Source: Streptomyces changanensis
GTDB taxonomy: Bacteria > Actinomycetota > Actinomycetes > Streptomycetales > Streptomycetaceae
Length of the DNA stretch: 64,000 bases
NCBI RefSeq assembly: GCF_024600715.1
Contig: NZ_CP102332.1
Coordinates: 2,852,001-2,916,000 of the forward strand
Direction of reading: 5' to 3'
Of the stretch, positions 11,710 through 44,385 are shown piece by piece. The position numbers and the translations under genes were made by a program. Under the pieces are notes generated by a model. That model saw only the letters and a list, made by a program, of their open reading frames with translations. It was not told the DNA's origin and made no database searches. Position 1 is the stretch's first letter, and each line of letters begins with the position of its first letter.

Positions 11710-12501
11710 GTGGCCGGAAACAGCCGTACGAGCGGTATTGGTAATTCCGCTGCCACCCCGCACCCCCACCGAGGAATTGAGGCCGACATCACTACGCGCA
11801 CGGAAACCACGGAAACCGGCCTGCGATCCGTGGACACGGTCCTTTTCGATCTCGACGGCACCCTGGTCGACACGCTCGACGACATCGTCCGCGCGGTCAA
11901 CACCGCGCTGCGCGCCCACGGCCTGCCCGTCCTGACCCACCCGGAGGTCCGCAGTCGCGTGGGCGAGGGCGGCACGGCGCTCGTCGACGCCTCCGTCCGC
12001 GCGTCGGGGCGCGACGTGGGGCCCGCGGTCGTGGCGCGGGCGCAGGAGGCGTACCTGACGGGGTACGCCGCCTCCCCCGCCGAGGAGTCCCGGCCGTACC
12101 CGGGGGCGGAGGAGCTGCTGAACCGGCTGCGGACCGTGGGGATCCGCACCGCGCTGTGCACCAACAAGGCCGGCGGCGTGACGCACGCCCTGCTCCGGGC
12201 GCTCGGCCTCGACGGCGCGTTCGACGCCGTGGTGACGGGGGACGACCCGGTCGGCCGCAAGCCGTCGCCGGAGCCGTTGCACCACGCGCTGAAACTGGCC
12301 GGCGGCTCGGCCGGCCTGATGGTCGGCGACAGCAGGCACGACCTCGCCGCCGCGGCGTCCGCCGGCATGCCCGCGGCGTGGGTCGGTTTCGGGTACGGCC
12401 GACCCGACCCCGGGCAGGCGCCCGACTTCGAACTGCCCAGCCTCGACGCGCTGGAGGCCGCGGCAGGCGCCGCCGGCATCCGACTGCGCGCCACCCGATG
12501 A
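11710..12501 (+). CDS. HAD-superfamily phosphatase (phosphoglycolate phosphatase-like)
   Basis: HAD motif I is FDLDGTLVDT (about residues 46-55), the cap region follows, motif II is CTNKAGG, the motif III lysine is in GRKPSPEP and motif IV is MVGDSRHD. All catalytic residues are present. The start is uncertain: GTG 11710 gives 263 residues, but the best ribosome site (GAGGAATTGAGG, 11771-11782) sits before ATC ACT ACG at 11788, where an ATG or GTG would be expected. It is 31 bp upstream of pvcA and co-oriented. PvcA-type enzymes consume ribulose 5-phosphate, so a role on a phosphorylated leftover or on a phosphorylated intermediate is plausible (inference). Confidence 0.8.
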   Translation: MAGNSRTSGIGNSAATPHPHRGIEADITTRTETTETGLRSVDTVLFDLDGTLVDTLDDIVRAVNTALRAHGLPVLTHPEVRSRVGEGGTALVDASVRASGRDVGPAVVARAQEAYLTGYAASPAEESRPYPGAEELLNRLRTVGIRTALCTNKAGGVTHALLRALGLDGAFDAVVTGDDPVGRKPSPEPLHHALKLAGGSAGLMVGDSRHDLAAAASAGMPAAWVGFGYGRPDPGQAPDFELPSLDALEAAAGAAGIRLRATR

Positions 12502-12532
12502 CCGCACCCACCCATCCCTCAAGGAGGGAACG

Positions 12533-13507
12533 ATGTCCGGTTCACCCGCGGATGAGATACTCCGTCTGGTCTTCTCTTTCCGCCGTCTCGCCCACGGTGC
12601 CGCGGCCGACTGCGCCGCCGGAGGCTGCGAGCAGTGCTTCGCGCTGCACCGGCCCAAGGTCGAGCACTTCATCGAACAGGGCGTTCCCGTCCACTTCGTG
12701 ATCCCGGCGTTCCCGGCCAAGTCGCCGAACCCGGAGAAGGTCCTCGGCACCCTGCCGGACATGGCCGAGCGCGTCTCGCTGGAGTTCCTCCAGGAGCTGT
12801 GCGACTACACCCGCCACTACTACGAGCCGGGCGCCCGCATCACCATCTGCTCCGACGGCCACGTCTTCAGCGACCTCGTCGGCGTCGGCGACGCGGACGT
12901 GGCGACGTACGGCGTCGAGCTGGAGACGCTGCTGCAGGCGATCGGCGCCGACGCGATCAACACCTACGGGCTGCAGGACGCCTTCCCCGGCTTCCCCTTC
13001 GACGAACAGCGCGCCATGCTCACCAGCCAGTACGCGGTCCCCGTCGAGGACGTCCGCGCCCGCGCCCTGAAGGAGCCGGCCGCGCGGAACATCTTCGGCG
13101 GCATCCACCGCTTCCTCTTCGAGGACCGCATGGCCACGACCACCGGCCGCAGCCGCAACAGCGTCCGCGAGGAGACCAAGTCCCTCGCCTACCACGTCAT
13201 CCAGCGCAGCGACGCGTGGAGCAACCTCGTCGAGGACTTCTTCCCCGAGGCGCTCCGCCTCTCCATCCACCCGCAGGTCAGCCACTCCCAGAAGATCGGC
13301 ATCCACATGATGCGGACCCGGGACAACTGGCTGACCCCCTGGCACGGCGTGGCGCTCGACGACGGCGAGGGCGTGCGCCTGGTCAAGCGCAGCGAGGCCG
13401 AGCAGCTCGGCGCGACGCTCGTCCGCCGCGGCGGCCGGGACAGCCACTACATCGCCCCGGACGTCTCGTCGTCCCTCAAGCCGCTCATCGAGGAGGTCGC
13501 GTCATGA
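12533..13507 (+). CDS. Isocyanide synthase 1 (PvcA/IsnA/Dit1 family)
   Basis: A 324-residue protein. Family hallmarks are FPAKSPNPEKVLGTLPDMAE (about residues 60-79), PGARITICSDGHVFSDLVGV (about 100-119), RLSIHPQ (about 241-247) and TPWHGV (about 265-270). PvcA/IsnA enzymes convert the amino group of tyrosine or tryptophan to an isonitrile, taking the carbon from C2 of ribulose 5-phosphate. Two cysteine-containing motifs near the N-terminus (CAAGGCEQC) are notable. The start ATG 12533 follows AAGGAGGG. Its stop overlaps the dioxygenase start (ATGA), the same order as pvcAB and isnAB. Confidence 0.92.
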   Translation: MSGSPADEILRLVFSFRRLAHGAAADCAAGGCEQCFALHRPKVEHFIEQGVPVHFVIPAFPAKSPNPEKVLGTLPDMAERVSLEFLQELCDYTRHYYEPGARITICSDGHVFSDLVGVGDADVATYGVELETLLQAIGADAINTYGLQDAFPGFPFDEQRAMLTSQYAVPVEDVRARALKEPAARNIFGGIHRFLFEDRMATTTGRSRNSVREETKSLAYHVIQRSDAWSNLVEDFFPEALRLSIHPQVSHSQKIGIHMMRTRDNWLTPWHGVALDDGEGVRLVKRSEAEQLGATLVRRGGRDSHYIAPDVSSSLKPLIEEVAS

Positions 13508-14301
13508 CCGCGTACACCGTCACCGCCCTCAAGCCCTTCGGCGCCGTCGTGGAGGCCCAGGAGCCGGGCACCGACCTGGGCGACGTCGACCCGGCGGCCG
13601 TACGGGCCCTGGTCGGCGAGCACCGCGTCGTCGTGCTGCGCCGCTTCCGCACCTGGACGCACAAGGACGACCTGGTCGCCTACGCCCGGCGCTGGGGCGA
13701 CCTGCTGTCGTGGAACTTCGGCGAGGTGCTGGACCTGGAGGTGCACGCCGACCCGAAGGACTACGTCTTCACCCCCGGCGAGGTGCCCTACCACTGGGAC
13801 GGCGCCTTCGCCGAGAAGACGCCCACGCACCAGATCTTCCAGTGCGTCCGCGCCCCCGCCAAGGGCACCGGCGGCCGCACCACCTTCTGCGACACCACCA
13901 TGGTCCTCGACGCGCTCCCCGACGAGCTGCGGGCCCGCTGGGAGGCGCTGGAGATCACGTACCGCAAGGAGAAGACGGCGCACTACGGGGGCCACATCAC
14001 GGCCCCGCTGGTCCAGCGCCACCCCCACACCGGCGAGCCGGTCGTGCGGTACGCGGAACCGCTGGACCCCGAGAAGTTCCTCAGCCCGCTCTTCCTCGAC
14101 GTCGAGGGACTGCCGGAGGGGACCGACGCGGAGGACTTCTTCGCGGACATCCGGGAGCGCCTGTACTCCCCGGACGTCATGTACCAGCACGCGTGGGAGG
14201 ACGGCGACTTCGTCGTCACGGACAACCACGCGCTGCTGCACGGCCGTACCCCGTTCACCCAGGGCTCGCCGCGCCACCTCCGGCGCGTGCACGTCCTGTG
14301 A
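13504..14301 (+). CDS. Fe(II)/2-oxoglutarate dioxygenase (PvcB/IsnB type, TauD family)
   Basis: A 265-residue TauD/TfdA-fold enzyme. The iron ligands are visible as HWD in EVPYHWDGAF (about residues 97-99) and the distal His in NHALLHGR (about 246), with an Arg in RHLRRVHV for 2-oxoglutarate. PvcB and IsnB act on the isonitrile made by their partner and introduce the alkene, with or without loss of CO2. Translational coupling to isocyanide synthase 1 supports the same role. It is the only PvcB-like gene in the window although there are two synthases. Confidence 0.9.
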   Translation: MTAYTVTALKPFGAVVEAQEPGTDLGDVDPAAVRALVGEHRVVVLRRFRTWTHKDDLVAYARRWGDLLSWNFGEVLDLEVHADPKDYVFTPGEVPYHWDGAFAEKTPTHQIFQCVRAPAKGTGGRTTFCDTTMVLDALPDELRARWEALEITYRKEKTAHYGGHITAPLVQRHPHTGEPVVRYAEPLDPEKFLSPLFLDVEGLPEGTDAEDFFADIRERLYSPDVMYQHAWEDGDFVVTDNHALLHGRTPFTQGSPRHLRRVHVL

Positions 14302-14341: not shown

Positions 14342-16114
14342 ATGCGACCGTACTACGACGTTGTGATCATGGGTGGCGGACCGGGCGGTGCGACGCTCGC
14401 CGCGCTGCTCATGCGACAGGGCGGGCTCAGCGTCGCCGTGTTCGAGAAGGAGGAGTTCCCCCGCGAGCACATCGGGGAGTCCTTCGCGCACCCCCTGATA
14501 CCGGTGCTGGAGGAGAGCGGGGCCCTGGAGAAGGTCCTGGCCAGCGACTGTTGGGTGAAGAAGTTCGGCGGGATCTTCCAGTGGCGGGGCGAGGACCCGC
14601 ACGTGGCGTTCTTCGACCACGACAACACCGTCCGGGACGGGGCGCACCGCTGGGCGGTGCACGCCAACCGCTCGGAGTTCGACGCGATCCTGCTGGACCA
14701 CGCGCGGGACTGCGGCGCCGAGGTCTTCGAGGGCGTCTCGGTCTCCGACTGCTCGCCGCCGGCCGACGGCACGGGCCAGGAGGTGACGCTGAAGGACGGC
14801 CGCACGGTGCGCGCCGGCTACTTCGTCGACGCCTCGGGCCGGCGCAACAGCGTCGTCACGAAGAAGAAGCGCGAGTGGCTCTCCGGCTACCGCAACATCG
14901 CCATCTGGCAGCACTACCTGGGCGGGAAGCCGACCCAGTCGCTGGAGGGCGACTGGAACATCTTCCGCGAGCACGACATGTCCCCGATCGGCTGCTTCGC
15001 CTTCCGCGACGGCTGGTGCTGGTACATCCCCGTGCCGAAGATCATCGACGGGGAGCGGGTGGTCACCCACTCGATCGGCATCGTCACGGACCCGGGGATC
15101 CTCAAGCAGCCGGGCACCGACTTCACCGACGCGGAGGTGTTCCTCCGCACGATCAAGGAGGTGCCGAAGCTCAAGGAGCTGATCGGGGACATCCGCCCGG
15201 TCGGCGACAAGATGCTGACGGCGACCAACTACTCGATGATCAACGACCGGTTCGCGGACTTCGACGGGCGCTGGATCCTGCTCGGCGACGCCTCGTACTT
15301 CGTCGACCCGCTCTTCTCCTCCGGCGTCGCCTTCGCCACCAACCAGGCGCGCGCCGCCGCCGCCCTCATCCGCCACTCCAGCGGTTCGCAGATGAGCGAG
15401 GAGGAGCTGCGCGGGCTGTGGGAGGACTACGACACCGAGTGGCACGGCATGGCGTCGTCGTTCGCGCTCTCCATCGACCAGTGGTACCACGCCATCGGCA
15501 AGGACAACCCGGAGAGCGTCTACTGGAACAGCCGCGGCACCGAGGGCCCGGCGGGACCGAGCCACGAGAAGACGTTCCAGGCGCTGCTGAACACGGCGTT
15601 CACGCCGGACCTCCTCCAGGTCCTGGCGCAGGGCGAGGGTCTGGCCGGGCTCGACGTGGACGGTCCGTTCATGACCGCCTTCGCCAAGGCCAACAAGCTG
15701 GAACTGACAGCCGACACGAAGGTGTCCCTGAAGGAGGGCGTGGCCGTCCTGCAGGGCCCGGCGCTCGACATCCCCGGCTTCAAGGCCGCCATCCCGCCGA
15801 ACCCGGACCTCGTGCCGGCGGAGGAGCAGCAGGCCATCAGGGCGTACTGGGAGGACCCGGTCCGCAACGGCCACCTCGTCGAGTCGCCGCTCGACCGGCC
15901 GCTGGACTGCCACCGGTTCCACATCCCCGGTGACCCGGAGGCCCCGCAGGTGCGCGGCCTGGACGAGCGGGACGGGGCGGCGGACCTCTGGGCGCGGCTC
16001 CGCGGGGGGCCCGTGCTCTGGAGCGAGCTGGTCCAGGACCTGCACGAGGGCCAGGAGCGGCTCCTCAAGCGGCTGCTGCACGCCGGGATGCTGGAGCTGG
16101 GCAACCACGCCTGA
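14342..16114 (+). CDS. Flavin-dependent halogenase 1 (CmlS/CndH type)
   Basis: A 590-residue FADH2-dependent halogenase. The N-terminal FAD motif is GGGPGG (about residues 11-16), the KKFGG segment (about 74-78) resembles the region of the catalytic lysine, and GWCWYIP (about 224-230) is the GWxWxIP signature that marks flavin halogenases. VDPLFSSG (about 320) matches the region linked to FAD in CmlS. The ~200-residue C-terminal extension is typical of the CmlS/CndH group, which halogenates phenols, pyrroles or acyl groups. ATG 14342 was chosen over a TTG one codon earlier. It is closely similar to the halogenase at 54223. Confidence 0.92.
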   Translation: MRPYYDVVIMGGGPGGATLAALLMRQGGLSVAVFEKEEFPREHIGESFAHPLIPVLEESGALEKVLASDCWVKKFGGIFQWRGEDPHVAFFDHDNTVRDGAHRWAVHANRSEFDAILLDHARDCGAEVFEGVSVSDCSPPADGTGQEVTLKDGRTVRAGYFVDASGRRNSVVTKKKREWLSGYRNIAIWQHYLGGKPTQSLEGDWNIFREHDMSPIGCFAFRDGWCWYIPVPKIIDGERVVTHSIGIVTDPGILKQPGTDFTDAEVFLRTIKEVPKLKELIGDIRPVGDKMLTATNYSMINDRFADFDGRWILLGDASYFVDPLFSSGVAFATNQARAAAALIRHSSGSQMSEEELRGLWEDYDTEWHGMASSFALSIDQWYHAIGKDNPESVYWNSRGTEGPAGPSHEKTFQALLNTAFTPDLLQVLAQGEGLAGLDVDGPFMTAFAKANKLELTADTKVSLKEGVAVLQGPALDIPGFKAAIPPNPDLVPAEEQQAIRAYWEDPVRNGHLVESPLDRPLDCHRFHIPGDPEAPQVRGLDERDGAADLWARLRGGPVLWSELVQDLHEGQERLLKRLLHAGMLELGNHA

Positions 16115-16458: not shown

Positions 16459-17961
16459 ATGGGCCAGAACAGCACGGCGGGCGAGGACAGAGCGGTCGCG
16501 CGGTGGCGCGACATCCTCGGGCCCGATGCCATCGCGTACGACGAGGACGCCCTCGCGGCGGCCTCCCGCAACACGTCGGCGTTCGCGCCGCGCCGCGTGG
16601 TGGCCGTGCTCCGGCCCTCCGACCCCGACCAGGTCGAGCGCGTCGTGCGGATCGCCCGCGAGGAGAAGGTGCCGCTCCACCCGTACAGCACCGGCCGCAA
16701 CTGGGGCCTGGGCTCCCGGCTGCCGGTGCGGGACGGCTGCGCGCTGCTCGACCTGTCCGCCATGAACCGCATCCGCGCGGTGGACAGCGCCGGGCGGTAC
16801 GCGGTCGTGGAGCCCGGCGTCACCCAGCTCCAGCTCGCCGACCACCTCGCCGAGCACGCCCCGGACCTCGTGGCCAACGTGACGGGCTCGTCGCCCGACT
16901 CCTCCGTGCTCGGCAACCTCCTGGAGCGCGGCACGGGCTTCCGCCGGCACCGCGCGGAGGAGGTGCGCGGCCTGGAGGTCGTCCTCGGCACCGGCGACCG
17001 CATCCGCACCGGCCTGTGGGCGGGCGAGAGCACGCGGCAGCTGCACCACTACCCGTACGGGATCGGGCCCTCGCTCGACGGGCTGTTCGTCCAGTCCAAC
17101 CTGGGCGTCGTGACCGCCGCGGTCGTCGACCTGCTGCCCCGTCAGGAGCAGTTGCGGCTGCTGATGTTCACCTGCTCCGAGACGGCGCTCCCGGGCGTGG
17201 TCGACGCGGTGCGCGGGCTGTTCCTGCGCGGCACCGTCCGGTCCATCGTGCACGTCTTCAACGACAAGCGGATCCTCGCCATGACGCGCAGCGACCGCGT
17301 GCCGACCTGGACCGGCGCCGTGGCCGTCGACGGCACCGCCGCGCAGGTGGAGTCGGCCGTCGAGGACATCACGACCACCCTCGCCGCCGAGGGCGCGGCC
17401 GTACGGGTGGTGGGCGCGCGGGACGCCGCGGCCCCGGACGCCGACCCGATGGTCGCCGCCATGTACGACGTGCACTCCGGACGGCCGACGACGGCCTTCC
17501 TCCAGGGGCTCTACCAGTCGGTGCCCGGCGCGGCGGTCCCGACCGACCTGGACGTCCTCGACGACACGACGGTCGGCTACCTGGCCTGCATGCCGGTGGC
17601 CGCGGTCGACGGACGGACGGTCGCCGACCTCGTCGCCCTGGTCGAGAAGACCTGCGCGGACCACGGCCTCGTGCCCGCCATCGCCGTCAACCCGACGGGC
17701 CCGGACTACCTGGAGTCGGTCGTCAACCTGTACTTCGACCGCACCGATCCGGCGCAGGAGGAGGCGGCCCGGGCCTGCAACACCGAGCTGCACGAGCGGC
17801 TGTACGCCGACGGCTTCCGCTTCTACCGCGTCGGCGTGGAGACGATGGCGAGCCTCACCGCGTGGGACACCGCGCCCTGGGACGCCGTGGCCCTGCTGAA
17901 GGACGCGCTCGACCCCGACGGCATCCTCTCCCCCGGCCGCTACGCGCCCCTGCGCCCGTGA
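16459..17961 (+). CDS. FAD-linked oxidase of the vanillyl-alcohol oxidase / p-cresol methylhydroxylase family
   Basis: A 500-residue protein. The PCMH-type FAD domain covers about residues 30-220: GRNWGLGSRLPVRDG, AVVEPGVTQLQLADHL, GSSPDSSVLGNLLERG, and LEVVLGTGDRIRTG. The C-terminal half is the VAO/PCMH cap ending in DPDGILSPGRY. Relatives oxidise para-alkyl or para-alkenyl phenols at the benzylic carbon through a quinone methide, which suits a tyrosine-derived phenol. ATG 16459 follows GAGGTGAGG. It is the last gene of the + strand isocyanide operon. The substrate is inferred. Confidence 0.87.
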   Translation: MGQNSTAGEDRAVARWRDILGPDAIAYDEDALAAASRNTSAFAPRRVVAVLRPSDPDQVERVVRIAREEKVPLHPYSTGRNWGLGSRLPVRDGCALLDLSAMNRIRAVDSAGRYAVVEPGVTQLQLADHLAEHAPDLVANVTGSSPDSSVLGNLLERGTGFRRHRAEEVRGLEVVLGTGDRIRTGLWAGESTRQLHHYPYGIGPSLDGLFVQSNLGVVTAAVVDLLPRQEQLRLLMFTCSETALPGVVDAVRGLFLRGTVRSIVHVFNDKRILAMTRSDRVPTWTGAVAVDGTAAQVESAVEDITTTLAAEGAAVRVVGARDAAAPDADPMVAAMYDVHSGRPTTAFLQGLYQSVPGAAVPTDLDVLDDTTVGYLACMPVAAVDGRTVADLVALVEKTCADHGLVPAIAVNPTGPDYLESVVNLYFDRTDPAQEEAARACNTELHERLYADGFRFYRVGVETMASLTAWDTAPWDAVALLKDALDPDGILSPGRYAPLRP

Positions 17962-18147: not shown

Positions 18148-19644
18148 TCAGCGTCCGGCCGGCACGCGGTCCGGCCCCGGGGCCGCGGCGGCCCGCCCGC
18201 CGGGTCCGTCGCCGGACGGCCCGGCGGCCCGGCGGCGGGTGGCGAGGAGCAGCACGCACACCCAGGCCGCGCCCGCCGAGACGGCCAGCGCGTACCGGGC
18301 GCCGTGCGCGGAACCCGCGAGGCCCCACACGGCGCCCGCGAGCGCCGGGCCCATGGCGAAGCCGAGGCTGCGGGAGAGCTGCACGAGGGAACCGGCGATG
18401 CCTACCGCCCTCGGCGGCGCGGCCGTCATCACCAGCGTCTGCGTCGGCCCGCCGTACAGGCCCATGCCCGCGCCGGCGAGCGCCAGCCGCCAGGCGACGT
18501 CCACCTGGGTCCAGTGGTCGCCGCTGAGCGCGAGCAACGTCAGGCCGACCGCCGTGACCGAGGCGCCGGCGAGGGCCGTGGGCCGGGGCCCGAAGCGGTC
18601 GGCGAGGCGCCCGCCGACGGGGCCCATGAGCCCCATGGCGAGGGGGAAGGCGAGGACGGTGAGTCCGGTGGCGGTGGCGGACAGGCCGCTGTCGTCCTGG
18701 AGCCGCAGCGCCACGACGTAGTGCATGGCCGCGAAGCCGGCGGCCAGGGAGAACACGGCCCCGTACACCCCGCCGACGCCGGAGGCGCGCACCACGTCGA
18801 GGACGGGGCGGGCGGCGGGCCGGCGCGTCCACCACACGATCGGCGGCAGCGCGGCGAGGCCCAGCAGCAGCCAGGCGGGGACCGCCGGGGCGAGGGTGAG
18901 GCCGAGGAGGAGCGCGGCGACGGCGCTGCCGACGAGCGCGGCGTCGACGAGGGGCTGACGGCCGGGGGCGGTCAGTCCGCCGCGCTTCGGCAGGACGCGG
19001 ACCACGACGAGCAGGGCCACCACGCACACGGGGATCTTGACGAGCAGGACCGCCCGCCAGCCGAACGCGTCCAGCAGGACACCGCCGACGGCGGGTCCGG
19101 TCACGGCGCCCAGCGGGCCGAGCGTGGCGGGCACGCTCATCGCGCGGCCGCGCACCGACGGCGGCACCGCGCGCATCACCAGGACGGGCATGAGGACGAA
19201 CAGCAGGGCGCCGAAGGTGCCCTGGGCGATCCGGGCGACGGCCAGCCACGCCATCCAGGGCGCGAGCGCCGCGAGCATCCCGCAGAGGGTGAACCCGGAG
19301 ATCGCCAGGAGCAGCGCGGACCGGAGCCCGACCCCGCCGCCCTTCCCCGCGGCCTCGCCGCCGCGGGCGCCGCCGTCCAGCCAGCGGCCCGCCGGCAGCA
19401 GCATCGACACGACGGCGAGCTGGTAGCCGAGGACCGCCCACTGGGCCATCGACGGGGAGACGTCCAGGTCGGTGGATATGGTGGCGAGGGCGATGTTCAC
19501 GACGTTCATATCGAGCATTGCCGTGAAGGACAGGGCGCCCGCGATGGCGACGAGGATCCACGGACTGCGGTCACCCGTTAACGGGTTCCCCGGCTTGTCG
19601 GGCGGCTGCTGGTCCGGGGCGGGTTCCTGCCCGTGGTGCGGCAT
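18148..19644 (-). CDS. MFS drug exporter (DHA2 / EmrB-QacA type)
   Basis: A 498-residue transporter with about 14 hydrophobic helices between residues 28 and 470. The N-terminus (SFTAMLDMNVVNIALATIS) is the DHA2 signature of helix 1, and RIAQGTFGALLFVLMPVLV and GPLGAVTGPAVGGVLL represent motif C and its neighbours. The family exports drugs by proton antiport. It sits between the first biosynthetic operon and the copper cassette, so self-resistance or product export is likely. The 394-bp upstream gap to 20038 is a shared divergent promoter. Confidence 0.87.
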   Translation of the reverse strand: MPHHGQEPAPDQQPPDKPGNPLTGDRSPWILVAIAGALSFTAMLDMNVVNIALATISTDLDVSPSMAQWAVLGYQLAVVSMLLPAGRWLDGGARGGEAAGKGGGVGLRSALLLAISGFTLCGMLAALAPWMAWLAVARIAQGTFGALLFVLMPVLVMRAVPPSVRGRAMSVPATLGPLGAVTGPAVGGVLLDAFGWRAVLLVKIPVCVVALLVVVRVLPKRGGLTAPGRQPLVDAALVGSAVAALLLGLTLAPAVPAWLLLGLAALPPIVWWTRRPAARPVLDVVRASGVGGVYGAVFSLAAGFAAMHYVVALRLQDDSGLSATATGLTVLAFPLAMGLMGPVGGRLADRFGPRPTALAGASVTAVGLTLLALSGDHWTQVDVAWRLALAGAGMGLYGGPTQTLVMTAAPPRAVGIAGSLVQLSRSLGFAMGPALAGAVWGLAGSAHGARYALAVSAGAAWVCVLLLATRRRAAGPSGDGPGGRAAAAPGPDRVPAGR

Positions 19645-20038
19645 TGCTGGGTCCTTTCACGCCCGCCGTGCGCCGGGCTACACCCTTATGGTCGCAGGTG
19701 GTTGGGGGTGGGTTCCCGGGCGGCGGGTGCGGGCGCACCGGAAGCGGACGGCCCGCCTTCGCGGTGCGGCCGAAAAACGGCGGAGGCTTTCTCCAGGTAG
19801 TCGGCCCGCGGCCCGCGCGGGTTCCCGGGGCGGAACGGGAGAATGCTCACGTGTGGCATTGCCGCCGAGCCGGGTGGATTCGGCGCGCATTCGTGCCAGC
19901 ATGGATTCCCGGGCCGCGGGAAATCGCCACTCTCCCAGGCGCGGCCCGTCCCTTGTCGGCCCGTCAGCCACGTGTCCGGGCCATCCCCCGTACCGGGATT
20001 CGCGGCTGGCGGGCGCTTTCGTGCAGGAGCGGAACACC
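19645..20038. promoter_or_regulatory. Divergent intergenic region between exporter and copper cassette
   Basis: About 390 bp without a supported gene. Overlapping frames here have no domains. The right end carries CAGGAGCGG before the Met-rich peptide ATG. Near 19680 is ACACCCTTATGG, only vaguely like half of a copper-repressor (CsoR) site, so I do not call an operator. Confidence 0.45.
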
Positions 20039-27260: not shown

Positions 27261-27292
27261 GGTTGTGGCTCCCTGGTCGGTGGGGACGGCGG

Positions 27293-28414: not shown

Positions 28415-28438
28415 GGCTCTCCTCGGGTGCGTGGCGGG

Positions 28439-38174: not shown

Positions 38175-38477
38175 TCACCGCAGCGGGGCGAGCACCTCCC
38201 CCGTGGCGGCGTCCCGCACGGTGATCGCCTCCATGGGGCAGGTCTCCGCCGCGTCCAGCACCGCGTCGTCCGGGCCGACGACCTCGTCCACCGGCCGGGC
38301 CCGGCCGCCGTCCAGCCGCATCCGGCCGTGCGCGGTGCCGAGGCACAGCCCGGTGCCGGCGCACACGAGCCGGTCGACCTCGATCCGCCACTTCCCCTGC
38401 TCCTGCGCCTGCGCCTGCTCCTTCTCCCGCGCCTCTTCCGGGCGCGGTCCCTGGGGCTGGTCCTGGTCCTGGGACAT
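38175..38477 (-). CDS. Ferredoxin ([3Fe-4S]-type, P450 redox partner)
   Basis: A 100-residue protein. After a Gln/Glu-rich N-terminus (residues 1-28), the ferredoxin core has VCAGTGLC (Cys-x5-Cys) and TCPMEAI (Cys-Pro), the pattern of Streptomyces single-cluster ferredoxins serving P450s. It is the last gene of the right-hand - strand operon; two P450 genes are nearby. ATG 38477 has AGGA about nine bases upstream. Confidence 0.87.
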   Translation of the reverse strand: MSQDQDQPQGPRPEEAREKEQAQAQEQGKWRIEVDRLVCAGTGLCLGTAHGRMRLDGGRARPVDEVVGPDDAVLDAAETCPMEAITVRDAATGEVLAPLR

Positions 38478-38496
38478 CTCCTGCTTTCCTTTCACG

Positions 38497-39150
38497 TCAC
38501 GGGACGACAGGGGGCCGTACCCGGGTGGAGCGGGACGCGGCACCGAGAGCGGCCGCGCGCAGCGACCGCTCCACGGCCGACGCGGCGTCATGGCCGGGCA
38601 GGATCCCCCTCCGCTCCGCCTCGGCCATCGTCACCGCCCTCCGGTCGCGCTCCGAAATGATCAGATCCGTACCGCCGGGGACGGGCAGCCCCAGCTCCGG
38701 ATCGAGGACGGAGACCGTCTCCTCGTCCTCCGCCGCGTACCGCGCGGACCGCAGGTCGGTGATGACGGTCTCCTCCAGGGCCACGACGGCGTGCGCCACA
38801 CCGGCCGGCAGGTACACGCCGCTCGGGTGGTCGGCGTCCAGCACGAGGGACTCCCACGCGCCGTACGTCGGGGAGCCCACCCGCACGTCCACGGCGATGT
38901 ACAGCGCGCGCCCCCGGGAGCAGTGCGCGTACGTGGCCGTGCCCGGTGGCGTGCGGGTGTAGTGCAGACCCCGCACCGCCCCCCGGCGCGACCGGCTGTG
39001 GGTGGCCTGTCGCACGGGGAACAGCGGACTGCCGGTGGCCGCCTCGAAGGCCGCCTCGTCGTACGGGGCGGCCACCTGCCCCCGCGCGTCGGACGAGGGC
39101 CGCGGGACGAACAGGTACGCCCCGGCGGTCCTCAGCTCGCGCACGTCCAC
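38497..39150 (-). CDS. RmlC/EvaD-family protein, copy 2, with altered active site
   Basis: A 217-residue cupin-fold homologue of copy 1. RGLHYTRTPPGTATYAHC (about residues 60-77) keeps the His but the Lys found in copy 1 (RAKYVYC) is Thr. In VITDLRSARY, Asp stands where copy 1 has the Tyr of VVYVMSEGY. It may epimerise only C3, isomerise, or be inactive. It ends close to the ferredoxin start and follows the glycosyltransferase. Confidence 0.8.
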   Translation of the reverse strand: MDVRELRTAGAYLFVPRPSSDARGQVAAPYDEAAFEAATGSPLFPVRQATHSRSRRGAVRGLHYTRTPPGTATYAHCSRGRALYIAVDVRVGSPTYGAWESLVLDADHPSGVYLPAGVAHAVVALEETVITDLRSARYAAEDEETVSVLDPELGLPVPGGTDLIISERDRRAVTMAEAERRGILPGHDAASAVERSLRAAALGAASRSTRVRPPVVP

Positions 39151-39201
39151 GACGTCCGTCCCTCCCCGGTCGCCAGGCGGACCGCCGTGCGGGCGCCGGC
39201 G

Positions 39202-40353
39202 TCAGGCGCCCGCCAGCTCCTCCAGGCGGGTGACGATGTCGAGCGGGGTCGGCATGGCCTTGATCTCCGCGCGGACCTCCGCGGCGGCCTCGCGGATCGA
39301 CGCGTCCGCGATGACCGACTCCAGCAGCTCCGGGCCGATGTCGTCCGGCTGGGCGATCCGGCCGAGGCCGCGGTCGGCGATGGCCTGCGCGACGACCGGC
39401 CGGCCCAGGCCCTTGAAGGCGGGCATGACCTGCGGCAGCCCGTGCACCATCGCGCCCAGCGCCGTACCCGGCCCGGCGTGGTGGATGACCGCCGAGCAGC
39501 CCGCCAGCAGGGCGCTGTAGGGCACCCAGTCGAAGGCGTGGACGTTCTCCGGCAGGGGGCCGAAGGGCTCCAGGTCGACCCGCGGCAGGACGACCACGAA
39601 CTCGGCGTCCGTCTTGGGCGCCGACGCGAGGATCCGCTCCAGGATGACGGCCGCCTCGCCCGGCACCGGACCGCTGCCGAGGGTGACGGCGATGCGGGGG
39701 CTCTCCGGGCGGCGGTTGAGCAGGTCGTACAGCGGCTTCGGCAGCGGGCCGCTGCCGTTGTACGGCACGAAGCCCATGGACCACATGCCGGGCTCGGTCG
39801 GGACGACGCTCGGCGGGGTGATGTCGATGGTCGCCCGCGCCTCGGGCAGGGTGACGCCGTGCTCCTCGAAGAGGTCGGCGTGCAGCTGGCTCATCATCTC
39901 GGCGGAGGGGTTGACGAACCCGAAGCCGTGCTGGACGGCGGGCACGCCGAGCTTGGCCGCGGCGACGATGCCGGGCGTGAGCAGCGGCGAGTGCACGACG
40001 ATGTCGGGCCGCCACTCCTCGGCCGTGCGGATCACCGCGTCGACCATCTCCGGCTGGAGGCGCAGCGCGGCCGCGACGGCCCCGCCGACGACCTCCAGGT
40101 ACGGCACGCCGGACGCCTCCTGGAGGAGCTTGGCGGCGACCTCGGGATGGTTCTGGGCCAGCTTGCCCACCATCTGGTCCAGGGACAGGCCGGGTGCCAC
40201 GTCCACGGTGCGCGCGCCCGCCTCGCCGAGGGCGAGGCCGGGGCCGCAGGAGGCGACCATGACCTCGTGGCCCGCCAGCTGCAGGGCCCAGGCGAGCGGG
40301 ACCATGGGGTAGGTGTGTCCCGTGCCCGGGGTGATGGTCATCAGTACACGCAT
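39202..40353 (-). CDS. Antibiotic glycosyltransferase (GT1 family)
   Basis: A 383-residue GT-B enzyme. The N-terminus MRVLMTITPGTGHTYPMVPL is the acceptor-domain opening, and the donor-domain signature HHAGPGTALGAMVHGLPQ (about residues 285-302) recognises dTDP-sugars. It should attach the amino-deoxysugar to the aglycone. It is the only glycosyltransferase in the window, so one sugar position is expected, unless it acts twice. Its neighbours are the flavin monooxygenase and the second epimerase. Confidence 0.9.
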   Translation of the reverse strand: MRVLMTITPGTGHTYPMVPLAWALQLAGHEVMVASCGPGLALGEAGARTVDVAPGLSLDQMVGKLAQNHPEVAAKLLQEASGVPYLEVVGGAVAAALRLQPEMVDAVIRTAEEWRPDIVVHSPLLTPGIVAAAKLGVPAVQHGFGFVNPSAEMMSQLHADLFEEHGVTLPEARATIDITPPSVVPTEPGMWSMGFVPYNGSGPLPKPLYDLLNRRPESPRIAVTLGSGPVPGEAAVILERILASAPKTDAEFVVVLPRVDLEPFGPLPENVHAFDWVPYSALLAGCSAVIHHAGPGTALGAMVHGLPQVMPAFKGLGRPVVAQAIADRGLGRIAQPDDIGPELLESVIADASIREAAAEVRAEIKAMPTPLDIVTRLEELAGA

Positions 40354-40434
40354 GTGTGGGAGTTCTCCGTTCGGAAAGGCGGGCGGCGTCGGTGCTCGGC
40401 GGCACGGGCGGCGGGCGGCTCGGCGCCGCCGCCG

Positions 40435-41652
40435 TCAGCGCAGCAGGTCGATGGGGCGCTCGGGGCGCAGGCCGATGGCCATCGCCCGGGCGGGGCCGGC
40501 CTGGAGCGGCGGCAGCCGCTTCATCAGGCGCAGCACGACGGGGGTGGTGGACTTCCCCTCGCCGCGGATCCACGGTTCGAGGAAGCGGGACTGCAGGAAG
40601 CGCTGGATCCGCTGCGTGACGGCGGTGGCCGTCTCGCGGCGCTTCTGCACCTGCGCCAGGTGCTCGTCGTTCAGCGCGCCGTCGCGCAGCGGTTCGGCGA
40701 GGACGTTGGCGGCGGCGACGGCGTCCTGGAGCGCGAGGTTGATTCCGACGCCCATGATCGGCGACATGGTGTGCGCGGCGTCGCCGAGGCAGAGCATGCC
40801 GGGCCGCCACCAGCGGCGCAGCCGGTCGATCTGCACGTCGAGCGTCTTGACGTCGTCCCAGCTGCGCAGGTCGTCCTCCAGCCGGCCGGCGAGGAACGGG
40901 GTGAGTTCGGCGAGCGTCGCGCGGAACGCCTCCAGTCCCTTGGCGCGCAGCTCCTCGTACCCGCCCTTGCGGATGGCGATGGCGGCCTGCCAGTGGCCGA
41001 GCCGCTCGATGCGGACGAAGAGCTGGCCGTCGGAGAGCCGGCCGACCATGCCGCCCGGGTCGCTGTCCTCCTTGGTGAGCTTGAACCACAGGATGTCCAT
41101 GCCGGAGCCGAAGACCTGCGGTCGCATGCCGGCGCTCTGCCGGAGGGCCGAGCGCCGGCCGTCGGCGGCGACGGTGAGCTCGGCGCGCAGCTCGTGCTCG
41201 CCGTCGGCGTCCGTGTAGCGCAGGCCGTTGACCCGGCCGCCAGCCGTGGTCACCCCGGTGACCTCGGCGTTCTGCACGAGCCGGAAGTTCGGGAAGCGGT
41301 TGGCCTCCTCCAGGAGGAAGTTGAGGAAGTCCCACTGCGGGAGGAAGGTGATGTACTTGAACTTCCCGGGCAGTCTGCGGAAGTCCGCCAGGGTGTGGGG
41401 GCCGTCGTCGGTGACGACCTGCAGGCAGTGGATGCGCTGGTGCGCCAGCTTCCGGAACGTGTCACCCAGGCCGAGTTCGACCATGAGCTGGTGGGTGGAG
41501 GCGTGCACGGTGTCGCCCCGGAAGTCGCGCAGGAAGTCGCCGTGCTTCTCCAGGACCACGGTGTCGACCCCTGCCCGGGCCAGCAGCATGCCGAGCATCA
41601 GCCCCGCGGGGCCGGCGCCGGCTATGGCGCACGTGGTGTGACCTAATGCCAT
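40435..41652 (-). CDS. FAD-dependent aromatic monooxygenase (PHBH-like), TTA-containing
   Basis: A 405-residue group A flavoprotein. GAGPAGLMLGMLLARAG is the FAD dinucleotide motif (residues 12-28), DGRRSALR is the DG motif (about 155) and GDAAHTMSPIMGVGINLALQDA is the second FAD motif (about 284). Relatives hydroxylate phenols or do Baeyer-Villiger steps. Codon 3 is TTA (positions 41644-41646), the rare Streptomyces codon read by bldA tRNA, so its translation may be delayed to development. Ortho-hydroxylation of a phenol is a plausible role. Confidence 0.88.
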   Translation of the reverse strand: MALGHTTCAIAGAGPAGLMLGMLLARAGVDTVVLEKHGDFLRDFRGDTVHASTHQLMVELGLGDTFRKLAHQRIHCLQVVTDDGPHTLADFRRLPGKFKYITFLPQWDFLNFLLEEANRFPNFRLVQNAEVTGVTTAGGRVNGLRYTDADGEHELRAELTVAADGRRSALRQSAGMRPQVFGSGMDILWFKLTKEDSDPGGMVGRLSDGQLFVRIERLGHWQAAIAIRKGGYEELRAKGLEAFRATLAELTPFLAGRLEDDLRSWDDVKTLDVQIDRLRRWWRPGMLCLGDAAHTMSPIMGVGINLALQDAVAAANVLAEPLRDGALNDEHLAQVQKRRETATAVTQRIQRFLQSRFLEPWIRGEGKSTTPVVLRLMKRLPPLQAGPARAMAIGLRPERPIDLLR

Positions 41653-41703
41653 GTTCTCCCTCGATCCGTTTCCGCGGCTCGCGTCACCGCGCGTGGGGGG
41701 ACA

Positions 41704-42906
41704 TCACCATTCGACGAGAAGGGATTCCGGGGCCCGCGCGATGAGGCCCGGCTTCCACGGAACATCATCTGCGGTGCCGGTGAGACGCAAGGTGGGGAAT
41801 CTGGCCATCAACCCCTCCAGTGCGACCTTGAGTTCGGCGCGGGCGAGACTCGCGCCGAGACAGAAGTGCATTCCGTGGCCGAATCCCAGGTGCGGGTTGC
41901 GCTCGCGGTCGAAACGGATGGTGTCGGGGTCCTCGAAGACGCGCTCGTCGCGGTCGCCGGCGGCCCGCTGGAAGATCACGGTGTCGCCCTCGCGGATGAG
42001 CTTCCCGCCGATCTCGACGTCCTCCGAGGCGCGCCGCGGGAAGCTGCCGACCGAGCGGAGCGGAATGATCCGCAGCATCTCCTCGATGGCGGGGTCCAGC
42101 AGGTTCCGGTCCTCGCACAGCTGCGTGTACAGCTCGCGCTGGGCCAGCAGCAGGAAGGAGACGTTCGAGATCATGCTGAGCGAGGTCTCGTGGCCGGCCA
42201 TGAGGACGCCGATGCCGGTGCGCACGGCCTCGACCTCGGAGAGCTGACCGGCGTCGAGGGCCTCGATGAGCACGGATATCAGGTCGTCGGAGGGGCTGGA
42301 GCGGCGCTTGGCGATGAGTCTGCGGAGGAAGTCCTCCAGTCCGTCGCGGGCCTCGTTGATCTCCTCCTTGGTGTGCGCGGAGGTGGCGACGAAGACGTCG
42401 GAGTACCGGCGGAACTCGGCGCGCTCCTCGTACGGGACGCCGAACAGCTCCACGATCATCCGGACCGGAAGCGGAATGGCGAGGCGCTGCACCAGGTCCC
42501 CGGGCGGGCCGGCCTCCTCCATGGCGTCGAGCTCGGACTCGACGAGGTCGCGCATGCGCTCGGCGAGCTGCGAGACGATGCGCGGCCGGAAGGCGTGGGC
42601 GACGACCTTGCGGATCCGGCCGTGGTCCGGCGGGTCCATGCTGAGCAGGTTGCCGGGGCGCAGCGGCAGCGGCGTGACGCGCGCGGTGTCGGGCTCGGTC
42701 GCGGCGTGCGAGCTGAACCGCGGGTCGGCGAGGAACTGCTTGATCTCGTGGTAGCCGGTGAGGAGCCAGGCCTCGCCGCCGTACGGCATCGTCACCCGGG
42801 ACACCGGTTCGTGGCGGCACAGTTCCAGGTACCGCGGGTGCAGGTCGAGCCGGACAACGGGCCCGAAGGGGTACTTCGGCGCCCCGACGGTTTCTGTGAC
42901 GGTCAT
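41704..42906 (-). CDS. Cytochrome P450 (second)
   Basis: A 400-residue bacterial P450. Heme motif FGHGMHFCLG with Cys at about residue 349, I-helix LMAGHETSLS with the normal acid-Thr pair, and ExxR in EEMLRIIP. ATG 42906 is chosen since GAAGGTGG lies just upstream; an ATG nine codons earlier lacks a ribosome site. The C-terminal DVPWKPGLIARAPESLLVEW also resembles CYP107/CYP158 relatives. Oxidation or phenol coupling of the aglycone is possible. It precedes the monooxygenase in one operon. Confidence 0.9.
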   Translation of the reverse strand: MTVTETVGAPKYPFGPVVRLDLHPRYLELCRHEPVSRVTMPYGGEAWLLTGYHEIKQFLADPRFSSHAATEPDTARVTPLPLRPGNLLSMDPPDHGRIRKVVAHAFRPRIVSQLAERMRDLVESELDAMEEAGPPGDLVQRLAIPLPVRMIVELFGVPYEERAEFRRYSDVFVATSAHTKEEINEARDGLEDFLRRLIAKRRSSPSDDLISVLIEALDAGQLSEVEAVRTGIGVLMAGHETSLSMISNVSFLLLAQRELYTQLCEDRNLLDPAIEEMLRIIPLRSVGSFPRRASEDVEIGGKLIREGDTVIFQRAAGDRDERVFEDPDTIRFDRERNPHLGFGHGMHFCLGASLARAELKVALEGLMARFPTLRLTGTADDVPWKPGLIARAPESLLVEW

Positions 42907-43350
42907 GATGGCCACCTTCTGCGTGTCGTCCATCGCGCCGGAACCGGGAGAACCAGGGCGCTCACGCCGTGGTGGTGGCACACACGTGAAGCCGATGCTC
43001 GGCTTTCCGAGGAATCCCGGCGATTCGACGGTGAGGAGAAGAGGTACGAATGCTTTTCGGGCGGGACTGGTCGGGTCCGACTTCGGGTGCGTCGGCGGCG
43101 GTGCGTCGACGCACACCGAACCGGCCTCTCGTACCGGAATCCTCTCACAAGGACCCTGCGGAAAGCCGGTGTTCGATGTCCTGATCACGTCCCCGCGGAA
43201 GGGGCGGGAACGCGAGAACCCGCCGGTCGGCGGGTGGGTGGGAGAAAGAGGGGGAGAAAGCGCGAGCCCCGCCGGCCGTCTCGGTGGCCGAAACGGGGCG
43301 GGGCTTTTCCGGACGATCTCTCCGGAGGAATAGGAAGGGTTAATTCCGTC
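42907..43350. other. Intergenic region between second P450 and ParB-like regulator
   Basis: About 440 bp without a supported gene. It holds the regulator's terminator hairpin (next entry) and presumably the promoter of the P450/monooxygenase/glycosyltransferase operon. I searched for the StrR-type inverted repeat (GTTCGACTG and its complement) and found none. Confidence 0.5.
43265..43305. terminator. Terminator hairpin between P450 operon and ParB-like regulator
   Basis: AGCCCCGCC pairs with GGCGGGGCT, with an inner CGGCC/GGCCG stem, followed by TTT on the + strand and by a T-rich stretch on the - strand. It lies about 45 bp past the regulator's stop. Confidence 0.75.
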
Positions 43351-44385
43351 TCAGGCGCTGGTGTGCGAGCGCTGACCGGTCCTCGCCTCCCGCTCCACGC
43401 GGTCGGCGAAACGGAGCCACATGTCGGCGCATTCGCGGGCGAGTTTGCTGACGCCCTCGGCGCAGTGCGGCGGGATGGTGGTGGCGAGCCGCGTCCACAC
43501 GGACTCGTCGACGTCGTGCACGGAGAAGCAGCGCAGCAGGAACCGGCCCGACTGCGACAGGCGCAGCGCCGGGTCCTTGCGGAGCCGCTCCAGGAGTTCG
43601 CCGGAGTCCCGCGGGACCTGGACCTGCCCGTCCGCCCGGTGCGGCGGCGTCCGCTGGGCCGGGATGCGCGGCTGCGGCCGCTCGGGGCGTGCGGCACCGC
43701 GGCCCTCGGGCACCGGGTCGCGCCCCAGCAGCAGGCGCTTCTTCACGTCGTGGGCGGTGCCGAGGGAGATGCCGGCCGCGCGGGCGATCTCGCGGAGGCT
43801 CGCCCCGGGGCGCTCCAGCATCAGTTCGCCGGCGCGCTGCCGGCCGCTGGCGACACCGGCCACCCCCGCCGGGCGGCGCTTGCCGTCCAGCCCGATGCGG
43901 GTGTTCAAGTGGGGAACCTCGTCACTCGAACGCCGCACCCGCGAGACCGTGCGCGGCGACAGGGCGGTGACGGAGGCCACGTACCGGTCGGAGAGCGCCG
44001 GGTTCTCCCGCAGGATGCGGGCGGCCGCGGCGAGCCGGTCGCCGTGCGACAGCGGCTTGCCGTGCGAGATGTTGAGGCTGACCGCGACCGCGAAGAGGCT
44101 GCCCTCCGGGGCGTCCAGCAGATAGGCGCTGATCGTGCGGTCGCCGCGCGCCCGGGCGGCGGCGAGCCGGTGCATGCCGTCGACGACCCGCCCGGAGGGG
44201 CGGTGCACGACGATCGGCGGCAGGTCCTCGTCCAGCGCGATCAGGGTGTCCACGTACTCCTGGTCGAGGCCCTTCGTACGCGGCGAGTCCGCCGGAAGGA
44301 GCGTCTCGACCGGCACGTCCGCGCGGGTTGCCGCGCTCAAGGTCGGAGCTAAGGTCAGTATGCCGTCGCCGTCACCGCTACTCAT
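43351..44385 (-). CDS. StrR/NovG-type pathway regulator (ParB-like), TTA-containing
   Basis: A 344-residue ParB/Spo0J-fold regulator. The ParB-like N-terminal domain has LPPIVVHRPSGRVVDGMHRLAAARARG (about residues 55-81); a helix-turn-helix lies at about 125-160 (DRYVASVTALSPRTVSRVR), and a second one near REIARAAGISLGTAHDV. StrR, NovG and Bbr relatives activate streptomycin, novobiocin and glycopeptide clusters. Codon 12 is TTA (44350-44352), implying bldA-dependent translation. It sits at the end of the biosynthetic region, as pathway regulators often do. Confidence 0.9.
   Translation of the reverse strand: MSSGDGDGILTLAPTLSAATRADVPVETLLPADSPRTKGLDQEYVDTLIALDEDLPPIVVHRPSGRVVDGMHRLAAARARGDRTISAYLLDAPEGSLFAVAVSLNISHGKPLSHGDRLAAAARILRENPALSDRYVASVTALSPRTVSRVRRSSDEVPHLNTRIGLDGKRRPAGVAGVASGRQRAGELMLERPGASLREIARAAGISLGTAHDVKKRLLLGRDPVPEGRGAARPERPQPRIPAQRTPPHRADGQVQVPRDSGELLERLRKDPALRLSQSGRFLLRCFSVHDVDESVWTRLATTIPPHCAEGVSKLARECADMWLRFADRVEREARTGQRSHTSA

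What the first reader, a model, noticed from the sequence alone, without database searches (positions are those of the whole stretch)
11710..44385. Candidate new cluster: chlorinated phenolic isocyanide carrying an aminodeoxysugar
Seen: two isocyanide synthases, a PvcB-like dioxygenase, a CmlS-type halogenase (a second one lies nearby), a VAO-type oxidase, two P450s with a ferredoxin, a flavin monooxygenase, one GT1 glycosyltransferase and a complete 3-amino-2,3,6-trideoxyhexose pathway, with no PKS or NRPS. Established: PvcA/IsnA enzymes install isonitriles on Tyr or Trp; rhabduscin is a glycosylated isocyanide and xanthocillin-type isocyanides can dimerise. Inference: the combination with chlorination and a daunosamine-like sugar matches nothing I can name.
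Basis: partly seen in the sequence, partly recalled or inferred. Interest (0 to 1): 0.9.

Follow-up and report, generated by a model that had tools for sequence, protein, structure and literature searches.

The report
Two interleaved isonitrile gene clusters
This stretch of a Streptomyces chromosome appears to hold two separately inherited gene sets for isonitrile compounds, a rare class that can bind copper; one set resembles that of the copper scavenger hazimycin with genes for chlorine and an amino sugar added.

Summary
Comparison with other genomes splits the region into modules found apart elsewhere. Module A (11.8-18.0 kb): isocyanide synthase ICS1, an atypical PvcB-like Fe/2OG enzyme, halogenase 1, a VAO-type oxidase. 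Module B (about 18-56 kb): ICS2, an unusual P450, a complete TDP-3-amino-2,3,6-trideoxyhexose pathway, glycosyltransferase, flavin monooxygenase, second P450, and halogenase 2 at 54.2 kb, outside the stated limits.

ICS2 and its P450 belong to a common Streptomyces locus class that usually carries a FecCD-type importer and often AsnB, exporter, sigma factor and copper genes. I equate it with the hazimycin chalkophores (Matsuda 2024, seen only as a citation). The window holds importer, exporter, copper genes and sigma; AsnB lies 3.4 Mb away. One ECF-type promoter pattern occurs three times in 6.9 Mb: before the importer, the window exporter and the exporter-AsnB operon.

Most likely product of B: a chlorinated, amino-glycosylated, hazimycin-like diisonitrile binding copper; A makes a separate chlorinated isonitrile-derived product. 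Architecture is shown; products are inferred. New variant of a known kind.

The parts
7236..7263 (+). ECF-type promoter pattern GGGAACT-N15-CCGACT, 95 bp before the called start of the importer operon
   Evidence: exact match; one of 3 in the whole genome
7331..10409 (+). g7-g9: binding protein (Peripla_BP_2), FecCD permease, ABC ATPase; importer class found with ICS-P450 loci
   Evidence: g8 at E<=1e-110 in 20 of 101 genus genomes, all 20 ICS-positive
11830..12501 (+). module A: HAD-like hydrolase (g11)
   Evidence: also next to ICS1 in M. matsumotoense, 68% identity
12533..13507 (+). module A: isocyanide synthase ICS1
   Evidence: PvcA 3e59; separate clade from ICS2
13504..14301 (+). module A: PvcB-like Fe/2OG enzyme, Ala/Ala at the two selectivity positions
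   Evidence: rule from PMC9467999 (passages)
14363..16114 (+). module A: flavin-dependent halogenase 1
16459..17961 (+). module A: VAO/4-cresol-dehydrogenase-type flavin oxidase
18148..19644 (-). DHA2-type MFS exporter (g16), relative of the exporter of AsnB-bearing loci
   Evidence: 74-76% relatives in module B of G058 and G032
19799..19826 (-). same ECF-type promoter pattern, before the MFS exporter
20347..23189 (+). copper P-type ATPase (g18) and PCuAC copper chaperone (g19)
   Evidence: class present in the fetched stretch of 16 (g18) and 17 (g19) of 45 ICS2-type loci
24260..30321 (-). module B: TDP-3-amino-2,3,6-trideoxyhexose genes (2,3-dehydratase, 4-ketoreductase, 3,5-epimerase, 3-aminotransferase, RmlB, RmlA)
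   Evidence: best 2oga; EvaA 4j7g
30371..31732 (-). CPA2-type cation/proton antiporter; antiporters of this family also sit in module A loci of G301 and M. matsumotoense
31860..32864 (-). isocyanide synthase ICS2, inside the clade of importer/AsnB-associated synthases
32972..34279 (-). P450a, usual partner of ICS2-type synthases; I-helix AGQEPVTNQ without the usual Thr
   Evidence: (40 of 45 loci)
35062..37857 (+). SARP-type regulator (BTAD, NB-ARC, TPR)
38175..42933 (-). module B: ferredoxin, second 3,5-epimerase, GT1, flavin monooxygenase, P450b
43351..47246 (-). module B: HTH regulator (ParB-like by my own reading), two-gene ABC exporter, two small proteins (weak DUF3817 and DUF2269 matches)
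48616..50096 (+). g42 (no Pfam match) and g43 ECF sigma factor, relatives beside many ICS2-type loci
   Evidence: sigma in 28 of 45 loci
54223..55992 (+). module B: flavin-dependent halogenase 2 (54% identical to halogenase 1)
   Evidence: 85-86% relatives at the edge of module B in G032 and G058

Best explanation
The region is a composite of two isonitrile pathways in a Streptomyces of the S. roseolilacinus kind. Shown: modules A and B are separable; both are intact and under purifying selection; the window holds importer, exporter, copper ATPase, PCuAC and sigma relatives of the ICS-P450 locus class; three operons of the genome carry one ECF-type promoter pattern. Inferred: ICS2 turns L-tyrosine into tyrosine isonitrile and P450a couples two units, as in hazimycin. 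Module B then oxidises (FMO, P450b with ferredoxin), chlorinates (halogenase 2) and attaches an L-daunosamine-like sugar (GT1). The remote AsnB (6.28 Mb), whose operon has the same promoter pattern, may amidate the carboxylates. The product is exported (MFS, ABC), binds Cu and is taken back by the FecCD importer, while CopA and PCuAC handle the copper. That sigma g43 reads the pattern is also inferred. Module A independently makes a second chlorinated, isonitrile-derived small molecule.
For: Separability: G058 and G032 carry B without A beside it; G301 and M. matsumotoense carry A apart from B. Retention together: window, G387 and S. roseolilacinus, with low dN/dS. Locus class: FecCD g8 in 20 of 28 ICS-positive and 0 of 73 ICS-negative genus genomes (Fisher p about 5e-15, genomes treated as independent, which kinship makes too small); AsnB in 13 of 28 and 0 of 73. 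Among 45 ICS2-type loci the stretches held show P450a in 40, importer in 35, sigma in 28, AsnB in 26, MFS in 24, PCuAC in 17, CopA in 16. G301 has sugar genes, ICS2 (70%), P450a, GT, FMO, AsnB, MFS, importer, PCuAC-like and CopA within one 53-kb stretch. Promoter: a matrix trained without the window's lineage gives 2 hits in the window, 0.03 expected; the exact pattern occurs 3 times in 6.9 Mb, 3 of 3 before these genes. ICS2 nests in that synthase clade. Analogue: in M. tuberculosis the ECF factor SigC switches on ctpB and the isonitrile nrp operon (PMC7924339, passages).
Against: No product is known. ICS2-P450a itself has no such promoter in the window, so joint control of synthesis and uptake is not shown. 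Module B in G058 and G032 stands without importer or AsnB of this class in the genome, so B can exist without the chalkophore parts. The CopA class also occurs in ICS-negative genomes and the sigma family in 73 of 101 genomes; neither is specific. The reversed-pattern control gave 4 hits against 3, so the number of pattern hits is unremarkable; only their positions count. The genus searches scored only the best 19 or 12 candidates of each genome. The hazimycin structure and gene functions are recalled; the paper is not held.
Confidence: 0.55

Rival explanations
1. One joint pathway: ICS1/PvcB-like/halogenase 1/VAO and ICS2/P450/sugar enzymes build two halves of a single hybrid molecule.
For: Both modules are kept together, in the same order, in the window, G387 and S. 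roseolilacinus, both under purifying selection. S. somaliensis lacks both halogenases and the 2,3-dehydratase genome-wide in a 4.7-Mb assembly, and VAO and the sugar genes at the locus, while both synthases remain.
Against: A apart from B in G301 and M. matsumotoense, B without A beside it in G058 and G032; ICS1 and ICS2 are 36% identical and in different clades.
Confidence: 0.15
2. Module A is a streptochlorin-type pathway: ICS1 makes a tryptophan isonitrile, the Fe/2OG enzyme hydroxylates the beta carbon, the hydroxyl closes on the isonitrile carbon to an oxazoline, the VAO-type oxidase aromatises it, and halogenase 1 chlorinates, giving a 4-chloro-5-(3-indolyl)oxazole.
For: S. roseolilacinus NBRC 12815 makes tyrosinase inhibitors 12815A and B (PMC10425256, passage); a review table lists streptochlorin for S. 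roseolilacinus with the same reference (PMC6539289, passage); S. tamarix, for which NBRC 12815 served as a comparison strain, makes streptochlorin (PMC10702757, passages). S. roseolilacinus JCM 4335 carries module A. The Fe/2OG enzyme has Ala/Ala at the selectivity positions, neither vinyl-isonitrile nor isocyanoacrylate type. The oxidase has Leu where phenol oxidases have (recalled) a substrate-binding Tyr.
Against: No gene has been linked to the compound; that JCM 4335 and NBRC 12815 are one type strain, the structure of streptochlorin and the ring-closing chemistry are recalled. ICS1 substrate unknown (best NCBIfam model is the Tyr enzyme, 287 bits against a cut-off of 600). S. roseolilacinus has other halogenase candidates (halogenase 2 and C8:18546). 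No VAO match lies in the 34 kb held around module A of G301.
Confidence: 0.15
3. Module B is an ordinary glycosylated vinyl-isonitrile antibiotic of the rhabduscin/byelyankacin sort; importer and copper genes are neighbours without a role in it.
For: In G058 and G032 module B stands without copper genes beside it, and those genomes have no importer or AsnB of this class.
Against: B has no PvcB homologue of its own but has P450a, the usual partner in importer/AsnB loci; G301 has B-type genes in one stretch with importer, AsnB and CopA.
Confidence: 0.2

Closest known systems
Hazimycin chalkophore clusters (Matsuda et al. 2024, J Antibiot 77:228; seen only as an entry in the reference list of PMC11085572; text not held)
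   Same: By my inference: ICS + P450 + AsnB + MFS + FecCD importer, with sigma factor and copper genes nearby; the window's genome has relatives of all of these
   Different: Window adds sugar pathway, GT, FMO, second P450 and halogenase; AsnB and a second exporter are 3.4 Mb away; ICS2-P450a lacks the shared promoter pattern
M. tuberculosis SigC / CtpB / nrp isonitrile chalkophore system (PMC7924339, passages)
   Same: ECF sigma factor, copper P-type ATPase and isonitrile genes in one regulon
   Different: Isonitrile made by an NRPS-linked route there (nrp operon), by PvcA-type synthases here; a regulon is only predicted here
Rhabduscin and byelyankacin (recalled, and PMC9467999 passages)
   Same: PvcA-type synthase, Fe/2OG enzyme and, by recall, a glycosyltransferase
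   Different: Fe/2OG enzyme here has neither published signature; sugar is a trideoxy aminosugar; halogenases and P450s added
Paerucumarin PvcA-D and xanthocillin (recalled)
   Same: PvcA/PvcB homologues; tyrosine-derived isonitrile dimers are known from xanthocillin
   Different: Glycosylation and chlorination genes added; no fungal ICS fusion enzyme
Hapalindole/welwitindolinone isonitriles (recalled)
   Same: Isonitrile products, some chlorinated
   Different: Cyanobacterial and prenylated, with a WelO5-type halogenase; the only WelO5-like match here is weak and outside both modules (60477-61304)

Membership tests
Hazimycin-type chalkophore locus (features as I infer them) | ICS2-type synthase paired with P450a | tested here: met
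   31860-34279; pair present in 40 of 45 loci; ICS2 nests in that clade
Hazimycin-type chalkophore locus (features as I infer them) | AsnB amidotransferase in the locus | tested here: not met
   None in the window; 85% relative at 6276131-6277954 of the same genome with an MFS gene and the shared promoter pattern
Hazimycin-type chalkophore locus (features as I infer them) | FecCD importer of the locus-specific class | tested here: met
   7331-10409; g8 class in 20 of 101 genomes, all ICS-positive
Hazimycin-type chalkophore locus (features as I infer them) | Shared ECF-type promoter before importer and exporter | tested here: met
   7236 + and 19799 -
Hazimycin-type chalkophore locus (features as I infer them) | Product binds copper and supplies it to the cell | not testable with these tools
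   needs metabolomics and growth assays
PvcB/PIsnB Fe/2OG desaturases | K/R + N/H (vinyl isonitrile) or L + C (isocyanoacrylate) at the PIsnB 107/188 positions | tested here: not met
   Ala/Ala in the window enzyme; of 23 sequences 9 Ala/Ala, 2 Val/Ala, 9 Arg with Asn or His, 3 Val/Leu (rule, positions from the alignment)
Flavin-dependent halogenases | WxWxI motif and conserved Lys (KKFG) as in PltA/CmlS (motif meaning recalled) | tested here: met
   both in g14 and g46, absent from FMO g34; best PDB matches include 8zop, PltA and CmlS
TDP-3-amino-2,3,6-trideoxyhexose pathway | RmlA, RmlB, 2,3-dehydratase, C3-aminotransferase, epimerase, 4-ketoreductase | tested here: met
   by family and best match; C3 position of the amino group and stereochemistry at C4 not tested
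   genomes with A apart from B and with B but no A beside it; kept together in 3 genomes

The most novel reading that the evidence does not exclude
A new structural class of chalkophore: a chlorinated, amino-glycosylated tyrosine diisonitrile whose synthesis, uptake and copper delivery form a split regulon (window importer, window exporter, and a remote exporter-AsnB operon 3.4 Mb away) run by one ECF sigma factor, with a second, independent chlorinated isonitrile pathway nested inside it whose Fe/2OG enzyme performs a third, undescribed outcome (hydroxylation and oxazole closure rather than desaturation).
Probability: 0.25. Interest if true: 0.82.

Novelty: new variant of a known kind. Interest (0 to 1): 0.62.

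Why it matters
Isonitriles are rare and several bind copper tightly. The comparison ties a large Streptomyces class of isocyanide-synthase loci (28 of 101 genus genomes sampled have a match to ICS2) to a specific importer, an exporter and one promoter pattern, which makes uptake and control directly testable, and it gives a concrete product hypothesis for a cluster for which my searches found no described compound. It also suggests that a cluster caller would merge two independent pathways here and miss a remote AsnB operon that shares the promoter pattern.

Tried and rejected
One-cluster reading: not upheld because A and B occur apart, though they stay together in three genomes.

S. roseolilacinus tyrosinase inhibitor 12815A as the product of module B: dropped, since a review table names streptochlorin for that source, which by recall has no sugar; kept only as a lead for module A.

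Copper ATPase and sigma factor as marker genes by themselves: rejected, both families also occur widely without an isocyanide synthase.

Substrate (Tyr or Trp) of ICS1 and ICS2 from sequence: no usable rule found; NCBIfam's Tyr model scores 287 and 256 bits against a cut-off of 600.

P450 function by nearest solved structure: uninformative (PikC, TamI, EryF and others for P450a; mostly entries named only P450, mycinamicin hydroxylase, nocardicin N-oxygenase, biflaviolin synthase for P450b).

Protein-database searches returned no source name pointing to a compound in the 120 listed of 547 and of 243 matches.

Literature: searches listed no report of a chlorinated aminosugar isonitrile from bacteria; only listings and the passages named in the report were seen, no whole paper. 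The library lacks most subscription journals, and the key hazimycin paper was not held. No antiSMASH or MIBiG comparison was possible. Structure prediction and fold search were not used.

Corrections of my own notes: says 19 of 20 importer genes lie within 10 kb of the ICS; by the coordinates it is 18 within 8 kb, the window at about 22 kb, and G001 split over contigs. says G301 lacks the aminotransferase; one search shows a 68% relative. Searches put a G301 promoter site before PCuAC; by position (L100 5519 -) it lies before the importer gene. One search puts both modules in DH12; only module A and the copper genes were seen there.


Full report
Setting. The window is G000:C1:2852001-2916000 of a 6.9-Mb genome in two contigs, with no tRNA gene in the window. 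A scan of named genomes with ICS1 gave four loci: Streptomyces sp. DH12 (99%), S. roseolilacinus JCM 4335 (89%), S. somaliensis DSM 40738 (86%) and Micromonospora matsumotoense (71%). Genes were called by a codon-usage script and named by Pfam and NCBIfam.

Observation. The sugar set is complete by family: RmlA and RmlB pass their NCBIfam cut-offs, the 2,3-dehydratase is closest to EvaA, the aminotransferase to 2oga ('Transaminase'; DesV by recall), with a 3,5-epimerase and an epimerase-family ketoreductase candidate. No methyltransferase family matched in g20-g40. The C4 configuration, hence 'daunosamine', was not tested.

Two modules. Mapping the window's genes onto 17 comparison stretches shows that G058 and G032 hold halogenase 2 (85-86%), the MFS exporter, sugar genes, ICS2 (78-80%), P450a, ferredoxin, GT, FMO, P450b, the HTH regulator and the ABC exporter (SARP in G058; only a fragment in G032), but not ICS1, PvcB-like enzyme, halogenase 1, VAO or the copper genes in those stretches. 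G058 has a distant ICS1/PvcB-like/halogenase set 4.9 Mb away (51%, 47%, 54%). G301 holds ICS1 (72%), the PvcB-like enzyme and halogenase 1 at 7.55 Mb, and a module B relative at 3.26-3.31 Mb; the only halogenase of this class in that genome is the one at 7.55 Mb. M. matsumotoense holds HAD, ICS1, PvcB-like, halogenase 1, an antiporter and VAO together; a 64% 2,3-dehydratase lies on another contig. ICS1 and ICS2 share 36% identity, the two halogenases 54%. In a 72-row tree ICS1 lies in a 13-row clade (100/100), and ICS2 with the module B synthases inside a 46-row clade of importer/AsnB-type synthases (100/96; root by midpoint).

Kept together. G387 and S. roseolilacinus carry the whole arrangement, modules, copper genes, importer and halogenase 2 in the same order (G387; S. 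roseolilacinus g3-g20, g19-g54 except g45, not matched). DH12 was seen only over 21 kb (module A and copper genes). In S. somaliensis the locus keeps both synthases, PvcB-like enzyme, exporter, copper genes, P450a and part of SARP at a contig end, but halogenase 1, VAO and sugar genes are gone from it; the 4.7-Mb assembly has no good halogenase, AsnB or 2,3-dehydratase match. dN/dS against G387 is 0.23-0.35 for module A, 0.15-0.45 for module B genes, 0.16-0.54 for the importer, 0.20 and 0.31 for CopA and PCuAC, 0.65 for g42, 0.21 for the FbiC-type gene. Halogenase 2 is assigned to B from G058 and G032, although in the window, G387 and S. roseolilacinus it lies about 38-41 kb from halogenase 1.

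The chalkophore-type scaffold. I fetched 50 stretches of 8-20 kb (L047-L096), part of the synthase places. Of the 50, 45 carry an ICS2-like synthase at 53% or more; the five left out are L049 (no synthase, flank of L048) and the ICS1-like L054, L075, L076, L090. Of the 45, 40 have P450a, 35 the importer permease, 28 sigma, 26 AsnB, 24 MFS, 17 PCuAC and 16 CopA. Since most stretches end about 10 kb from the synthase, these are lower bounds. They were chosen for having a synthase, so the better test is the genus sample: g8 at E<=1e-110 occurs in 20 of 101 genomes, all within the 28 that match ICS2; 18 lie within 8 kb of it, the window at about 22 kb, and G001 is split over contigs. AsnB at E<=1e-200 occurs in 13 of 101, again all synthase-positive; 12 lie within 2 kb of it, only G000 elsewhere. 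CopA and sigma are not specific.

Identification with hazimycin. ICS, P450, asparagine-synthase-type amidotransferase (Pfam) and an importer fit my recollection of hazimycin as a dimer of tyrosine isonitrile amides. [quoted passage not shown] its text is not held, so the match of gene sets is my inference. Among the 120 listed of 547 relatives of ICS2, many at 57-66% are from Kitasatospora, K. purpeofusca among them.

Regulon. A dyad search upstream of six gene classes put GGAAC-N16-CCGAC first: 30 loci for the importer (38 sequences), 22 for MFS (27), 11 for P450a (38), 2 for CopA (20), 1 for AsnB (30), none for sigma (28). A matrix from 67 sites, the window's lineage and G301's AsnB region excluded, scores two sites in the window, 7237 + and 19825 -, with 0.03 expected (60 first-order random 64-kb sequences, lower threshold). 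The corresponding sites score in G387, DH12 and S. roseolilacinus; two sites lie before the exporter in S. somaliensis; in G301 sites lie before the MFS-AsnB genes, the importer and the CopA operon; G058 has one before its exporter. The consensus with three mismatches allowed is not enriched in the window (24 hits, 23 expected). The exact pattern GGGAAC-N16-CCGACT occurs three times in the genome: these two, and 6279587 - before the MFS-AsnB operon (genes). The reversed control pattern gives four hits, so the number is unremarkable; that 3 of 3 fall before genes of this class is what counts. No site lies before ICS1, ICS2-P450a or the sugar operon; the SARP is a candidate activator (inference).

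Mechanism. Module B: ICS2 makes tyrosine isonitrile. P450a, with the motif AGQEPVTNQ in 52 of 53 aligned hits, some from overlapping loci, would couple two units (inference). FMO, P450b with ferredoxin, halogenase 2 and GT1 decorate. AsnB in trans may amidate; G058 and G032 lack that AsnB class, so it cannot be essential to B everywhere. The window's genome has one ICS2-type synthase; its third DIT1_PvcA match (1963276) is a half-domain protein. So any hazimycin-like compound it makes must use the window's ICS2.

Module A: the Fe/2OG enzyme has Ala at both positions that separate vinyl-isonitrile from isocyanoacrylate formers. Among 23 sequences, window included, 9 are Ala/Ala, 2 Val/Ala, 9 Arg with Asn or His, 3 Val/Leu (rule in PMC9467999, passages, where single swaps did not change the outcome). 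The VAO-type oxidase has GLG where, by recall, VAO and 4-cresol dehydrogenase have a substrate-binding GYG, in the window and in 4 of 4 relatives found, while a Tyr-Arg pair is kept. A simple phenol oxidation is therefore less certain. The streptochlorin lead is described among the rivals.

What would change the verdict. A product lacking the sugar, chlorine or isonitriles, or a published cluster with the same B genes. Novelty is rated 'new variant of a known kind': the parts have known relatives; the combination and the split regulon were not found in what I could search.

Noticed in passing
L065, L072, L088 (G036, G048, G337): A third isonitrile cluster type: ICS2-like synthase, PvcB-like enzyme with Val/Leu signature, GT and aminotransferase relatives; a 2,3-dehydratase and C-methyltransferase also in L065 and L088. 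Perhaps another aminosugar isonitrile.
   Followed up: partly
L104 (G000:C1:1954000-1973000), 8851-10425: Third DIT1_PvcA protein of the genome: 524 aa with about half the domain, near a SARP-like gene and genes for a Cys/Met PLP enzyme, a haem-oxygenase-like protein and a homoserine succinyltransferase-like protein.
   Followed up: partly
L054 (G058:C1:7390000-7409900): ICS1-like synthase, PvcB-like enzyme and halogenase beside a UbiA-type prenyltransferase: a possible prenylated chlorinated isonitrile.
   Followed up: no
window 30371-31732; L033 15853-17157; L046 13840-14400: CPA2-type antiporters sit in both module types although only 34-38% alike; perhaps a shared need.
   Followed up: no
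window 59543-61304: A PALP-family gene and a PhyH-like gene with a below-cut-off WelO5 match, conserved in G387 and S. roseolilacinus.
   Followed up: no
L045 (S. somaliensis DSM 40738): Reduced version of the locus: halogenase 1, VAO and sugar genes absent from it; synthases, exporter, copper genes and P450a kept.
   Followed up: partly
L051, L057, L059, L066, L082, L095: A second FecCD-type importer set (52-54% to g8) placed beside the synthase in some loci.
   Followed up: no
window 50285-53722: A protein with Radical_SAM and CofH_C domains (FbiC-type by recall) and a luciferase-like protein lie between the cluster and halogenase 2; probably housekeeping.
   Followed up: no
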